DNA from: Psychromonas sp. psych-6C06
Lineage (GTDB): Bacteria > Pseudomonadota > Gammaproteobacteria > Enterobacterales > Psychromonadaceae
Direction of reading: 5' to 3'
DNA: 64,000 bases
Assembly: GCF_002835465.1 (NCBI RefSeq)
Contig: NZ_PIZM01000006.1
Location: 310,001 to 374,000, forward strand
In this document: piece by piece, positions 21,083 to 62,286 of the stretch
How positions within the stretch are numbered: the stretch's first letter is position 1
Layout: each line of letters opens with the position of its first letter
The notes under the pieces: model-generated
What the model saw: only the letters and a program-made list of their open reading frames with translations
Databases searched by the model: none
Told to the model about the DNA's origin: nothing
Made by a program: the position numbers and the translations under genes

Positions 21083-21095
21083 TGCTTGTAAGAAA

Positions 21096-21130
21096 GCTGT
21101 TGGCTGTCAGTTATCAGCTGCCAGCGTAAG
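21096..21130. repeat. Short heptad-periodic repeat
   Basis: Reads as five 7-bp units: AGCTGTT, GGCTGTC, AGTTATC, AGCTGCC, AGCGTAA. The same series in similar form occurs at 58237-58271 next to the larger heptad array. Confidence 0.6.
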
Positions 21131-57495: not shown

Positions 57496-57518
57496 TTAGT
57501 CCGCTAAGCAGTAATGTG

Positions 57519-57543
57519 AAAGAGAGCTTCGGCTCTCTTTTTT
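57519..57543 (+). terminator. Terminator of the PhoU-like/pit operon
   Basis: AAGAGAGC-TTCG-GCTCTCTTTTTT: stem with a stable TTCG loop and T-run. Confidence 0.9.
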
Positions 57544-57609
57544 GTTAATCGCACTTTTACTTAAATGTAATTGCTTTAAAATAACCGCAGTCTTTATTCT
57601 TGGTAACAG

Positions 57610-58227
57610 GTGAACCCTTTGAAAAAATTTAAAATGCTTTTTGCAACACTACTGGCAACGGTCTCGATGAATACTTTCGCTGAGGTGCGTTATATCAGTG
57701 ATGACGTTTTTATCTATCTACACTCAGGACCAAGCTTAGAATATCGCATTATTGGTACATTAAAAGTTGGCACACAGGTAGATACTTTAAAGTACGATGA
57801 GAAAACCAAGTTCATGCAGGTAAAGTCTGAAACCGGCCGTGTGGGGTGGATGAAGTCTTCTGAATTACAAGCAACACTGCCAGCTAAAAGCTTACTACCT
57901 ACTGTGCAGGAAAAGTTAGTCGCAGCTGAAGAAAAATTAGCTAACATTGCGGCTGAAAATGCTGCTAGCCTTGCTGATAAAGAGCAACTGTTTCAAGAGC
58001 AAATTATACAGGTTGATAATTTAGAGCAGGAAAAGGCATCATTACAGCAACAAATTTTAGATCTTAAAGCGCGTAATTTAGAGTTGGACTTATTGCAAGA
58101 AACGAAAGAGTCACGCATTCAAATGGAATGGTTGCTTAATGGTGGTGGGGTGTTATTTTTTGGATTGTTAATTGGCTTATTAATTCCTTTTCTACCACGC
58201 CGTAAAAAACGTACTAATAACTGGTAA
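57610..58227 (+). CDS. SH3-domain membrane protein YgiM family (TIGR04211)
   Basis: About 205 residues. Signal-like N-terminus (FKMLFATLLATVSMNTFA), then a bacterial SH3 domain (VRYISDDVFIYLHSGPSLEYRIIGTLKVGTQVDTL...GRVGWMKSSEL), a long coiled coil (about 105-170) and one C-terminal TM helix with a basic tail. Start is ambiguous: GTG 57610, or TTG 57619, which has AGGTGA five bases before it. ygiF and ygiM are often near each other in related genomes. Probably an envelope protein; exact role unknown. Confidence 0.85.
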   Translation: MNPLKKFKMLFATLLATVSMNTFAEVRYISDDVFIYLHSGPSLEYRIIGTLKVGTQVDTLKYDEKTKFMQVKSETGRVGWMKSSELQATLPAKSLLPTVQEKLVAAEEKLANIAAENAASLADKEQLFQEQIIQVDNLEQEKASLQQQILDLKARNLELDLLQETKESRIQMEWLLNGGGVLFFGLLIGLLIPFLPRRKKRTNNW

Positions 58228-58237
58228 TTGAAAAGAA

Positions 58238-58267
58238 GCTGACAGCTGATAGTTTTCAGCTGTCAGC
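58238..58267. repeat. Perfect 12-bp hairpin after ygiM
   Basis: GCTGACAGCTGA-TAGTTT-TCAGCTGTCAGC. It has no T-run, so it is not a standard terminator. It is made of AGCTGAC-type heptads and resembles 21096-21130. Confidence 0.7.
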
Positions 58268-58350
58268 GAGTAATAGCTAAAGAGTCCTTCTTGCTTGTTA
58301 AAGCTTGCTCTTCCTACTAAGCACCACAGCGCTTTCTCTATTCTATTATT

Positions 58351-58476
58351 ATAGCTTATAGCTTATAGCTTATAGCTTCTAGCTTCTAGCTTCTAGCTTC
58401 TAGCTTCTAGCTTATGGCTTCTAGCTGACAGCTAATAACTGACAGCTAATAACTGACAGCTGATAGCTAATAACCT
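58351..58476. repeat. Heptanucleotide tandem array, 18 units
   Basis: Continuous 7-bp register without slips: four ATAGCTT, five CTAGCTT, one ATGGCTT, one CTAGCTG, then alternating ACAGCTA/ATAACTG units, ACAGCTG, ATAGCTA and ATAACCT. Nearly every unit carries AGCT, so on either strand it reads (AGCTNNN)n. It ends exactly at the gspB stop triplet (58477). Confidence 0.9.
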
Positions 58477-59247
58477 CTAATACCCTTTCCAGTCCGTTAA
58501 CGACTCTACACTAAAGCTTTGTCTTTCTAAGCGGAAAATACTTCGCTGAGGCTGTATTTCAATGAGTTCTAACTGTCCTGTACTATCAAACTCACCTTCT
58601 GTAAGCTTTTCACCGTTGATGCGAATCCACCTATCAGCAACCACTGATGAGTACATATGCGAGTCGTAACGGATAAGTGGTACTTTATTTTGAAAGTCAC
58701 TGCTCATGTCTCGAATATCGCTGCCATCATTCATCCCTTCTTCGGGAGTGAAGTCATCTTTTATTTCACTATTTTCTTCAATTTCGCTTAACAGAAGTGC
58801 TAATTCAAAGCGTTTTTTGAGATCGTTTGGCGTATCTTCATAATCTACTTCAGTTGATGTGTTTTCTTCATTAAGTGAGATAACTTGTTGTGAATTGTCT
58901 TCCTCTTCAATCACTTCCTCTTCCTGAACAGATACGGTTTTAGGTGCTTGAACTGTTATTTCTGCCTTAGGTGCTTGCGTTGGAAGTGGTTTAGTATCAA
59001 ATGTTACTTGCACCATGTGGTTCTTTTGAGGTTGCTGTGTGACGATGTTATTCATTGCCGGTGCCACTTTAGCTGGTGGGTTAAGCAATAAATATATCAG
59101 CGCGCTTAATAATACGATGATCACGAGTAATGCCGCAGAAATAATCACTTTCCATTGCATGAATATATTCACTTTAGGGGCGACCGGTGGGGGAGTCCCT
59201 GTCTGGTCAAAATTACTTTTTTGTAATGCTTGTAAAATAGTCGACAT
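58477..59247 (-). CDS. gspB: GspB/ExeB-type general secretion protein
   Basis: 256 residues. Start MSTILQALQKSNFDQ, one TM helix (about 32-54), a Pro- and Glu-rich spacer and a C-terminal T2SSB-like domain (PLIRYDSHMYSSVVADRWIRINGEKLTEGEFDSTGQLELIEIQPQRSIFRLERQSF). It works with ExeA/GspA to place the secretin in the peptidoglycan layer. Its ATG overlaps the exeA stop (TAATG). The heptad array begins immediately after its stop. Confidence 0.9.
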   Translation of the reverse strand: MSTILQALQKSNFDQTGTPPPVAPKVNIFMQWKVIISAALLVIIVLLSALIYLLLNPPAKVAPAMNNIVTQQPQKNHMVQVTFDTKPLPTQAPKAEITVQAPKTVSVQEEEVIEEEDNSQQVISLNEENTSTEVDYEDTPNDLKKRFELALLLSEIEENSEIKDDFTPEEGMNDGSDIRDMSSDFQNKVPLIRYDSHMYSSVVADRWIRINGEKLTEGEFDSTGQLELIEIQPQRSIFRLERQSFSVESLTDWKGY

Positions 59248-60842
59248 TAGTTTGCTTCCTGCAATAATCGAGGTGAATCGGGCGAAGCGATCTGCATTAG
59301 TGGCATCAATGTACGTGGTCCTACAATACCATCGTCCATAAGTCCTTGCTCACGTTGAAATGCACTCACCTGCTCTAGTAAACGTAGGTCAAAGCGAGTT
59401 TTATTTTCGCTAGACCATCCCTGTTCTTTGTTAAGTTGATTGGCTAACCAAGTCACTTTTTCGCCCTCTTGCCCAAACTTAATGGCCCCATTTAATGGGA
59501 AGGGAGCTTTCCATATTAACGTGCTTTCGCCTGTCCAATATTGTTGAAACCACGCTTCTGTGACATAGATGAGGTTACCATTTATAAGTAGTTGATAGTT
59601 GTCTGCGATCTTGTAAATGACCGCGTACACTTCATCTTTATTGTTATTAGCTAAGCGGATTACACTTGGATAATTTAACTGTTTAAGTTGCTCTAGGTTA
59701 ACTTTACGTTCATAACAATTCATTAATGCACTGTTATTTTGTTGGCAACTGATAGCGTTGCTATTTACCTGATATCCCCATACGGAATATAAACTTGTTA
59801 ACGCATTTTGATAGTTGCTGTTACTCAGGTCTAGCTGTGGGTAGGCATTAAACCACTCGCTACCTAAGGCAACATGCTCTTGCTCATCAAACGATAAGCT
59901 TTTTTTCAGAGTGACTAAAGCGTCATCGGGGATTAAGCGCTGTATAATTTGTGGTGCTTGCCAGAGAGTCAATGCAATTAATGCGACTAATGCAGGAATT
60001 CGCCATTTGGTCAGCAAGGATTTTGACTTCGTCTTATGGTGTTCAAAATGCACTTCTCGGCTAGCTTGCTTGACCATTTTTAGAGTAACAATATGGCTAT
60101 CTTCGGTATAAGCTGCCAATAAGCTGCGATCACAAAGAATATTCGTTAAACGTGGAGTGCCTTTACACTTCCTAAAGATCTCTTGTAGCGCGGATTTATC
60201 AAAAATAGCATGCATTGACCCGGCAATATTAAGTCGATGCTGAATATACAGATTGCTTTCTTGCTGTGTTAAAGAGAGAAGGTGGTAACGTGCTGTTATT
60301 CGCTGTGCTAATTGGCGAAATTCAGCCTGCTTTAGCTTCTCCTGTAACTCTGTTTGACCAATTAAAATAACCTGTAATGGTTTTTTATCGTTAGTTTCGA
60401 TGTTAGTAAGCAAGCGAAGTTGTTCAAGCGCTGCAAAACTAAGGTGTTGTGCTTCATCGATAATGACAATGGTATGGCGATTTTGTAAACAGTTTGCAAT
60501 CATCCATGTGGTCAGTTCATTGAAAAGAGAGCGTAGATTGTTTTTCTGATATTGAATATTAAAGCTATCGCAAATCGTCGACAGTAATTCAATCTCACTT
60601 AAAGCTGGATTAAGAATAAAAGCAATATCGCTATCATCGCTCATATGTTCGACCAAAGAGCGACAAATAGTGGTTTTTCCCGTCCCCACTTCACCTGTTA
60701 GTAGTGCAAAACCGCCATGACCTTTTAAGCCTTCTTTGAGATGGTCAATCGCCTCTTTATGACGTTCACTCAAAAAAAGAAAGTTAGGATCCGGTGAAAT
60801 GGAAAAAGGTTTTATTTTTAATGAAAAAAATTCTTGGTACAT
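59247..60842 (-). CDS. gspA: ExeA/GspA-type secretion ATPase with peptidoglycan-binding domain
   Basis: 531 residues from ATG 60842 (MYQEFFSLKIKPFSISPDP); an upstream frame of 21 codons is not conserved. AAA ATPase: Walker A GEVGTGKT at 50-57, Walker B VIIDEAQHLS (D129, E130). TM helix about 270-288. The C-terminus carries a PG_binding_1 domain (FDLRLLEQVSAFQREQGLMDDGIVGPRTLMPLM). Uses ATP and peptidoglycan binding to assemble the type II secretion secretin. Coupled to gspB. Confidence 0.93.
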   Translation of the reverse strand: MYQEFFSLKIKPFSISPDPNFLFLSERHKEAIDHLKEGLKGHGGFALLTGEVGTGKTTICRSLVEHMSDDSDIAFILNPALSEIELLSTICDSFNIQYQKNNLRSLFNELTTWMIANCLQNRHTIVIIDEAQHLSFAALEQLRLLTNIETNDKKPLQVILIGQTELQEKLKQAEFRQLAQRITARYHLLSLTQQESNLYIQHRLNIAGSMHAIFDKSALQEIFRKCKGTPRLTNILCDRSLLAAYTEDSHIVTLKMVKQASREVHFEHHKTKSKSLLTKWRIPALVALIALTLWQAPQIIQRLIPDDALVTLKKSLSFDEQEHVALGSEWFNAYPQLDLSNSNYQNALTSLYSVWGYQVNSNAISCQQNNSALMNCYERKVNLEQLKQLNYPSVIRLANNNKDEVYAVIYKIADNYQLLINGNLIYVTEAWFQQYWTGESTLIWKAPFPLNGAIKFGQEGEKVTWLANQLNKEQGWSSENKTRFDLRLLEQVSAFQREQGLMDDGIVGPRTLMPLMQIASPDSPRLLQEAN

Positions 60843-60948
60843 AAATAACCTAAAGAAATAAAAGTATCGTCCGTGATGCGGGTATTTTAACTGATTGTGA
60901 GACAAACAGGAAAAAACAAAGTTGCAATTTGCTATGTCAGAAATACTT

Positions 60949-62286
60949 TTATTCTATATCGCGGTGTATCGTTTTGTAATCTTTAATCCAAGGGTCTATT
61001 TTAGGGAACTGATTTTGAAACTCTTTACTCGCAAGCTTGGCCATTTTATAGGTATGAAAAGTGCCTAATAAAATAATATATTTGGACTTTTTAGATGTAA
61101 CACCATGGTAGAGATATGTCTTTCCTTTTAATCTTGGATACTCGTCGAAAAAACGCTCCACAGAGCTTTCATTTGGTAATGCGGCTAGTTGCAAACTATA
61201 ACTACTGCTTGGCATGGCTAATAAAGTACCTACGGCGGTAAGCGTTGTAACCGACGGTGGATTGCCCGAGGCATCTACTTGTTCGCTGACCGCTGGGCTT
61301 GGCTGTGTATTGGCATTATTTATTATTTTTAACCACTCTTTTTGCATTGCCTGTTCTTCAGAGTCTTTAAAGTAATTAGCAATTGCAGGCGCCTGCGAAT
61401 TGATAATAAACACTGTTAAGATTACCGAAACAATTGCCACGCTATGGGGTATGTAGGGCGCAAAAGGGTGCGGGTGTTTAGGAAGTTCAGCTTCGCTAAT
61501 CGCTTGCTTAGCAATAGGTGCGCTAATGCTAATAGATGATTGTGTATAAGCACTTAACAAACAACGATCGCATATCTGGTTAATAAGCTTTGGAATACCA
61601 CGACTGGCTTTATAAATGACGGGTATAGATTGCGGATCAAATATTGGTCCTTTGGCGCCAGAACGATTAAGGCGATGGTGAATATAAAAGCTAGTTTCTT
61701 GTTTGTTTAAGCCTCGCAAATGATAGCGGGCAGTTATACGCTGCGATAGTTGGCGTAACTCTTTTGTTAACAGCTTCTTTTGTAGGTCAGTTTGACCGAC
61801 AAGAATAATTTGCAGTGGCTTTTGGTTATCAGACTCGATATTGGTTAATAGGCGTAATTGCTCTAAAACATTAAACGAAAGGTGCTGTGCTTCATCAATT
61901 AATACAATTGCATGGCGTCCATGTTGGTGATTCTCTAACATCCATGAAGCTAGGGCATCAAACATTACTTTAAGAGAGATGTTATCGCGATCGTAACTGA
62001 TAGAGAATTGGTTACAAATTTCAACAAGCAAAGCAATTTCAGACACCGCTGGATTAGTAATGGAAGCAACATCTGTATCGGCTGGCATATCTTGTAATAG
62101 AAAGCGACAAACACTGGTTTTTCCCGTGCCGACTTCTCCTGTTAAAACAACAAACCCGCCATTACCTTGTAGTCCGTACGTAAGGTGGGCAAGGGCCTCT
62201 TTATGTTGTTCGGTAAAAAACAAAAAATCAGGCTCAGGCGCAATTGAAAATGGCTGCTGATTTAATGAAAAAAATTCCTGGTACAT
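60949..62286 (-). CDS. ExeA-like AAA ATPase with C-terminal SPOR domain
   Basis: 445 residues, a paralogue of the next gene. MYQEFFSLNQQPFSIAPEPDFLFF and Walker A GEVGTGKT (50-57), Walker B VLIDEAQHLSFNVLEQLRLLTNIES are nearly the same in the ATPase part. After a TM helix (about 280-300) the C-terminus differs: SYSLQLAALPNESSVERFFDEYP...YIILLGTFHTYKMAKLASKEFQNQFP reads as a SPOR domain. Both tails should bind peptidoglycan but different forms of it. The 106-bp gap to the second gene suggests a shared transcript. Confidence 0.88.
   Translation of the reverse strand: MYQEFFSLNQQPFSIAPEPDFLFFTEQHKEALAHLTYGLQGNGGFVVLTGEVGTGKTSVCRFLLQDMPADTDVASITNPAVSEIALLVEICNQFSISYDRDNISLKVMFDALASWMLENHQHGRHAIVLIDEAQHLSFNVLEQLRLLTNIESDNQKPLQIILVGQTDLQKKLLTKELRQLSQRITARYHLRGLNKQETSFYIHHRLNRSGAKGPIFDPQSIPVIYKASRGIPKLINQICDRCLLSAYTQSSISISAPIAKQAISEAELPKHPHPFAPYIPHSVAIVSVILTVFIINSQAPAIANYFKDSEEQAMQKEWLKIINNANTQPSPAVSEQVDASGNPPSVTTLTAVGTLLAMPSSSYSLQLAALPNESSVERFFDEYPRLKGKTYLYHGVTSKKSKYIILLGTFHTYKMAKLASKEFQNQFPKIDPWIKDYKTIHRDIE

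What the first reader, a model, noticed from the sequence alone, without database searches (positions are those of the whole stretch)
58351..58476. In-register heptanucleotide array (AGCTNNN)n ending at the gspB stop
Eighteen 7-bp units run without any slip for 126 bp, moving from pure ATAGCTT to pure CTAGCTT to alternating ACAGCTA/ATAACTG blocks, as expected of repeated slippage or unequal exchange with different seeds. Each unit has the self-complementary AGCT, so the array is symmetric on both strands. It ends exactly at the stop codon of gspB. Length change could alter the mRNA end of gspB and of ygiM.
Basis: seen in the sequence. Interest (0 to 1): 0.65.

Follow-up and report, generated by a model that had tools for sequence, protein, structure and literature searches.

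The report
Expanded stop-codon-adjacent heptad repeat element
A run of 7-letter DNA repeats after the gspB gene proves to be an expanded copy of a short repeat that this group of bacteria carries just past the stop codons of many unrelated genes, with close copies nearly always facing the same way, which hints at a signal read in the messenger RNA.

Summary
The array is real: 18 in-phase heptads at 58353-58478, 14 with an exact AGCT core. It is one of many AGCT-cored arrays in this genome. In intergenic DNA of 1.6 Mb, AGCT stands out at spacings 7 and 8. Of 19 intergenic chains, 11 lie within 30 nt of a stop codon (random mean 3.0) and none lies between divergent genes. The 'alternating' gspB-proximal part is two overlapping minus-strand copies of an interspersed repeat, AGCTGTCAGTTWTTAGCTGTCAGCT (about 33 nt when extended), found in 7 of 24 genomes of the genus. 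All 53 close copies examined were intergenic. Of these, 49 read in the sense direction of the nearest stop, including all 37 within 40 nt (median gap 11 nt); diverged copies are less strict (12 of 20 sense). At four orthologous loci that share it, the repeat is better conserved than both flanks. Best reading: a REP-like 3'-end element that at gspB has expanded by slippage. An RNA-level role is inferred, not shown; covariation gives no support for a hairpin. Copy-number variation within the species could not be tested. New variant of a known kind.

The parts
58353..58478 (.). Heptad array, 18 in-phase units, 14 exact AGCT
58423..58461 (-). Two overlapping copies of the interspersed element (58423-58447: 0 mismatches; 58437-58461: 1 mismatch), sense for gspB, 15 nt from its stop
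58353..58422 (.). Nearly uniform expansion blocks (AGCTTAT / AGCTTCT on +, AGCTATA / AGCTAGA on -)
58244..58268 (+). Diverged element-like copy (4 mismatches) 16 nt after the ygiM stop, sense for ygiM
58238..58267 (-). Terminator-like hairpin (12 bp stem, T-rich tail) for transcripts leaving gspB, built of the same words (AGCTGAC/AGCTGTC)
57610..58227 (+).
58477..59247 (-). gspB (T2SSB, PF16537), the gene whose stop the array touches

Best explanation
The array is the gspB copy of a lineage-specific interspersed repeat of about 33 nt (sense strand AGCTGTC AGTTWTT AGCTGTC AGCTWTC AGTWA) that sits about 11 nt after the stop codons of unrelated genes, in the sense direction, and ahead of the transcription terminator where one is recognisable. 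At gspB the element has grown by 7-bp and 14-bp slippage or unequal exchange into an 18-unit array; AGCT cores 7 nt apart let strands realign in register. Shown: the array, its match to the element, the stop-proximal location and the orientation bias of close copies. Inferred: slippage as the growth mechanism, and that the element acts in the mRNA (3'-end protection, processing or termination) rather than as DNA.
For: Element in 7 of 24 genomes of the genus at <=3 mismatches, reversed control 0 in all 24. 53 close copies (<=2 mismatches, near hits merged): 53 intergenic, 49 sense and 4 antisense to the nearest stop; 37 of 37 within 40 nt are sense; median gap 11 nt. In the seven long stretches, which were not picked from the element list, 9 of 9 close clusters are sense. 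Upstream genes are unrelated: lysS, GspF/PilC-like, RluE-like, maf, sucD, purD, L-serine ammonia-lyase, purF, galE, ruvX for the 10 of 36 loci checked. At 4 of 4 orthologous loci compared the element is 88-94% identical, the downstream 60 nt 62-77%, the pre-element spacer 36-78%. A canonical terminator lies within 180 nt of the stop in 12 of 36 element loci, in all 12 downstream of the element, against 127 of 1239 genes and 49 of 368 convergent ends of G000. AGCT spacing peaks at 7 (61 against 9.1) and 8 (43 against 9.1) in intergenic DNA. 11 of 19 chains within 30 nt of a stop, random mean 3.0, 0 of 2000 as high; 0 divergent against 4.6 expected. 14-bp duplications inside elements elsewhere, e.g. 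L296. The sense 33-mer folds at -11.9 kcal/mol, antisense -7.9, shuffles of the sense consensus -4.4.
Against: Covariation on 52 distinct variants does not support the hairpin (score reached in 53 of 500 shuffles), so the fold energy may follow from the repeat words alone. The sense/antisense energy gap is in effect one observation, because copies were picked by one asymmetric query. Diverged copies are not strictly oriented: of 20 clusters at 3-6 mismatches in the seven stretches 12 are sense and 8 antisense, within 40 nt of a stop 7 and 3; one antisense example is in this window at 21102-21126. The four orthologous loci were compared because both species matched the query, which favours the element over its flanks. 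17 of 24 genomes of the genus gave no match, so it is not essential. No expression data.
Confidence: 0.6

Rival explanations
1. Neutral minisatellite: slippage arrays arise anywhere from hairpin-prone AGCT seeds, are purged from coding and promoter DNA, and so survive mainly near 3' ends; no function.
For: Arrays are mostly intergenic (19 chains against 4 in coding DNA) and avoid divergent spacers; units differ between loci and species; AGCT arrays with many different triplets occur in many phyla. Period 7-8 equals a 4-bp palindrome plus a 3-4 nt loop (inference).
Against: Does not explain one interspersed 25-33 nt sequence behind unrelated genes, the near-uniform orientation of close copies, or higher conservation than flanks at four orthologous loci (these were picked for having the element). 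TCGA, TGCA, ACGT and GATC show no such spacing peak at 7-8 here.
Confidence: 0.21
2. REP-like mobile element: a miniature element copied to gene ends by a tyrosine transposase or similar, with no host role.
For: Location matches published REPs: intergenic, convergent or unidirectional, close to 3' ends. Y1_Tnp genes in 7 of 7 genomes with the element.
Against: Y1_Tnp also in 12 of 17 genomes without it, one of these below the family cut-off; no GTAG/CGTC end tag in the consensus; no palindrome supported by covariation. Whether copies flank transposase genes was not tested.
Confidence: 0.13
3. The array is itself a transcription terminator or its relic that replaced an ancestral bidirectional terminator of the spacer.
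For: 10 of 20 congener spacers carry a CGCA..TGCG hairpin that is absent here (by eye); a minus-strand terminator-like hairpin of the same words lies at 58267-58238.
Against: The scan finds no terminator inside the array, and the whole spacer folds only moderately (z -2.35 on +, -2.14 on -). Elsewhere the element precedes a separate terminator (12 of 36).
Confidence: 0.05

Closest known systems
REP elements (GTAG/CGTC super-families; PMC3733652, abstract and one section read)
   Same: Short interspersed repeats, intergenic, between convergent or unidirectional genes, often close (<20 bp) to 3' ends of ORFs, probably transcribed
   Different: No GTAG/CGTC tag, heptad-phased direct-repeat make-up, hairpin not supported by covariation, near-uniform sense orientation of close copies, tandem 7/14-bp expansion
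GGGNATC heptamer repeats of Xanthomonas and Nostoc (PMC4692102, abstract and one section read)
   Same: Heptameric, mostly intergenic, under-represented between divergent ORFs, many within 50 bp of the stop on the coding strand
   Different: G-rich, proposed G-quadruplex; here the core is the palindrome AGCT with no G-tracts, and a longer compound element recurs
TAACTGA direct repeats of marine Beggiatoaceae (PMC4679880, abstract and three sections read)
   Same: Intergenic heptamer direct repeats with patchy phylogeny; TAACTGA itself occurs in the + strand of this array
   Different: There one fixed heptamer, in the main genome mostly just upstream of start codons; here mixed heptads just downstream of stops
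Bacterial long simple sequence repeats / minisatellites (Mrazek et al. 2007, seen only as cited in PMC4679880)
   Same: Heptanucleotides described as the most abundant unit class, slippage proposed
   Different: Here a constant AGCT core with variable triplets plus a dispersed seed element

Membership tests
REP element (GTAG/CGTC) | Terminal GTAG or CGTC tag | tested here: not met
   Consensus of 36 copies with flanks has neither at its ends
REP element (GTAG/CGTC) | Palindromic unit forming an RNA/DNA hairpin | tested here: inconclusive
   Good predicted fold but no covariation signal
REP element (GTAG/CGTC) | Intergenic, near 3' ends, few between divergent genes | tested here: met
REP element (GTAG/CGTC) | Associated RAYT transposase flanked by copies (GTAG class) | tested here: inconclusive
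   Y1_Tnp in 7 of 7 genomes with and 12 of 17 without the element; flanking not examined
Heptameric simple sequence repeat | Tandem in-register 7-bp units beyond chance | tested here: met
Phase-variable contingency locus | Unit number varies among isolates and switches expression | not testable with these tools
   One genome per species; no isolates or reads
Intrinsic terminator | GC-rich stem followed by T-run within the array | tested here: not met
   In the spacer only 58267-58238 (-), outside the array, fits the scan
Known Rfam RNA family | Match at gathering score over the element or array | tested here: not met
   Window 57500-59000 gave one sub-threshold match elsewhere (58816-58874, E 0.19); in 20 loci, 19 of them among the 40 element loci plus L071, 8 matches, none on the element

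The most novel reading that the evidence does not exclude
The element is a directional mRNA signal placed just beyond the edge of the terminating ribosome, used by one bacterial lineage at tens of unrelated genes (stability, processing or termination) and read by a lineage-specific RNA-binding factor; heptad expansion at gspB tunes its strength.
Probability: 0.22. Interest if true: 0.7.

Novelty: new variant of a known kind. Interest (0 to 1): 0.45.

Why it matters
It ties two kinds of bacterial intergenic repeat together: heptamer arrays and stop-proximal interspersed elements. It gives a concrete origin for an array (expansion of an oriented element) and a sharp bias (37 of 37 close copies near stops are sense) that a 3'-end mapping experiment can test.

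Tried and rejected
Rejected: terminator inside the array. Known RNA family. Hairpin proved by covariation (negative). RAYT association as an explanation (not discriminating). Rho YC-dimer spacing: one paper listed, not read; by reading, the sense consensus is not C-rich, idea dropped. DNA uptake sequences: a paper on them appeared in the listing and was not read; copies only in intergenic DNA and tens per genome argue against it. A first, stricter terminator scan gave 5 of 36 against 68 of 1239; the looser one is quoted in the argument. Rows dropped: 4 of the 40 loci fetched (L326, L327, L328, L332) had no copy at <=2 mismatches and are not in the orientation count. The list was cut by the tool, so the fetched loci come from G000, G006, G009, G022 and G024 only; no copy of G025 or G030 was examined for orientation. 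Diverged copies (3-6 mismatches) are counted apart.

Full report
OBSERVATION. The array is there and in register: 18 heptads from 58353, 14 with an exact AGCT, no slip, the last running into the gspB stop. A four-unit AGCT pattern never appears in 100 dinucleotide shuffles of the window. The spacer lies between convergent genes: an SH3_3-domain gene (+, ends 58227) and gspB (-, T2SSB, ends 58477).

GENOME-WIDE. The same four-unit pattern occurs 41 times per strand in the whole genome (overlapping matches counted), the reversed control 0. I read 1.6 of 3.72 Mb (C2 1-800000, C1 1-400000, C6 140001-539979). In 800 kb of C2 there are 7 exact period-7 runs; 6 contain AGCT, three of those at one locus, so 4 of 5 loci. 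Among all 256 tetramers in intergenic DNA of the 1.6 Mb, AGCT has 61 pairs at spacing 7 and 43 at spacing 8, against about 9 at other spacings. CAGC at spacing 8 scores marginally higher than AGCT at 7, part of a related period-8 word family; TCGA, TGCA, ACGT and GATC show no such peak at 7-8. Nineteen intergenic chains of three or more AGCT were found (10 convergent, 9 tandem, 0 divergent) and 4 in coding DNA. Some chains share a spacer (19 chains at about 14 spacers). Eleven of 19 lie within 30 nt of a stop codon; random placement, chain by chain, gives 3.0 on average and never 11 in 2000 trials; divergent 0 against 4.6 expected, P 0.0055. Gene calls are my own ORF and codon-usage calls, not curated annotation.

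ORTHOLOGOUS SPACER. Twenty-one spacers were printed, 20 of congeners and that of G000 (G030 and G010 shown only in part). By eye, 10 of 20 congeners carry a CGCA..TGCG hairpin, G024 carries a different array (AGCTATC)n, and G022 keeps only TAGCTAAT beside the gspB stop. The array thus appears recent and lineage-specific.

THE ELEMENT. Reading gspB's strand, the stop-proximal part of the array is AGCTGTCAGTTATTAGCTGTCAGTTATTAGCTGTCAGCT. The 25-mer AGCTGTCAGTTWTTAGCTGTCAGCT recurs at unrelated places. With up to 3 mismatches it is in 7 of 24 genomes of the genus, G000 included (hits per genome, overlaps included: G024 92, G009 60, G000 31, G006 30, G025 13, G030 8, G022 4), with 0 for the reversed control in all 24. 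In a 197-genome sample of the order (13 of the 24 genus members among them) a 31-letter form is in 5 genomes: G000, G006, G022, and G104 and G181, two of one genus in another family. Forty loci were fetched from the cut list, taking mainly copies with few mismatches, without regard to direction; none is from G025 or G030. At <=2 mismatches, with near hits merged, these and the seven longer stretches gave 53 copies, all intergenic, 49 sense and 4 antisense to the nearest stop; 37 of 37 within 40 nt are sense. Some are orthologues (purD, rluE-like, gspF/pilC-like and sucD pairs) or tandem duplicates, so at most about 33 independent near-stop cases remain. Median distance from the stop 11 nt, quartiles 8.5-16.5. 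In the seven stretches alone, which were not chosen from the element list, 9 of 9 close clusters are sense, 8 of them within 40 nt. Against this, of 20 diverged clusters (3-6 mismatches, homogeneous arrays included) in the same stretches 12 are sense and 8 antisense; within 40 nt, 7 and 3. The orientation rule holds for close copies and weakens with divergence.

EXTENT AND CONSERVATION. Columns not used for selection (25-32) are still conserved, giving AGCTWTCAGTWA at the 3' end, with an A-rich lead (36 copies). At four orthologous loci the element is 94, 94, 88 and 91% identical; the following 60 nt 68, 62, 77 and 73%; the gene ends 88, 84, 87 and 90%. These loci were compared because both species matched the query, so the contrast is biased towards the element. 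The upstream genes checked (10 of 36) are ordinary and unrelated. A GspB tree of 22 genomes places four carriers (G000, G024, G022, G009) with one very long-branched non-carrier, with weak support; the label takes 3 changes on this tree, and one origin is not ruled out.

MECHANISM. Shown: where the element is and which way close copies face. Inferred: RNA function. The sense consensus folds at -11.9 kcal/mol against -7.9 antisense, with sense lower in 34 of 36 copies and shuffles at -4.4. But all copies were found with one asymmetric query, so this is close to a single observation, and covariation is no better than shuffled columns (53 of 500). Sequence, not structure, looks conserved. Canonical terminators follow 12 of 36 copies, in all 12 downstream of the element, against 127 of 1239 genes (10%) and 49 of 368 convergent ends (13%) of G000. 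In the window the terminator-like hairpin for gspB transcripts lies beyond the array at 58267-58238 and uses the same words. Growth by slippage is inferred from uniform 7-bp blocks and 14-bp duplications here and at L296, and from a chain of 62 AGCT in G024. That the element starts near the downstream edge of a terminating ribosome is my inference from the median gap.

KNOWN KINDS. Location matches REPs as described in PMC3733652 and GGGNATC heptamers in PMC4692102. TAACTGA repeats (PMC4679880) are a heptamer kind placed mostly before start codons in their main genome. No Rfam family matches the element or array. In the rows listed by the paper searches (each shows only the best few of its hits) I saw nothing that describes this AGCT element; most subscription journals are not held. 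The reversed TCGA control also occurs in about 24 of the 394 genomes (my count of the table), perhaps partly because AGCTCGA units contain both. So AGCT is special in this genome by the census, not shown to be special in bacteria.

VERDICT. Function unproven.

Noticed in passing
window 21095-21126: A diverged element-like copy (4 mismatches), 5 nt from a minus-strand gene's stop but antisense to it; a counter-example to the orientation rule.
   Followed up: partly
G000:C5:123948 onward (L002, L061); G000:C1:19927-20016 and 226856-227019: A second, period-8 family (AGCTTTTC / AGCTTTCC, and AGCCTTCC-like words) shares the AGCT core; the two C1 arrays lie between convergent genes.
   Followed up: partly
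L063 / G000:C2:362344-362397: A 54-N run lies inside an (AGCTGTT)n array with the same units on both sides, possibly an unresolved array length in the assembly.
   Followed up: no
G024:C1:63300-63737: A chain of 62 AGCT units (438 bp) overlaps the end of one called gene and lies 41 nt before the next.
   Followed up: no
L137 (Zobellella denitrificans), about 4420: By eye, an (AGCTAGA)n array may supply the TAG stop codon of the upstream reading frame.
   Followed up: no
L299 (G009:C16:50300-55300), 204-1256: Four matches to the TwoAYGGAY RNA family within 1.1 kb, two on each strand.
   Followed up: no
window 59247-62286: Two GspA-like AAA ATPase genes in tandem next to gspB; the second has a SPOR domain where the first has GspA_C39-like and peptidoglycan-binding domains.
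   Followed up: no
L034 (G000:C2, upstream of 500277): CCACAGAGG...CTCTGTGGTTA interspersed repeat next to an (AGCTGTT)n array.
   Followed up: no
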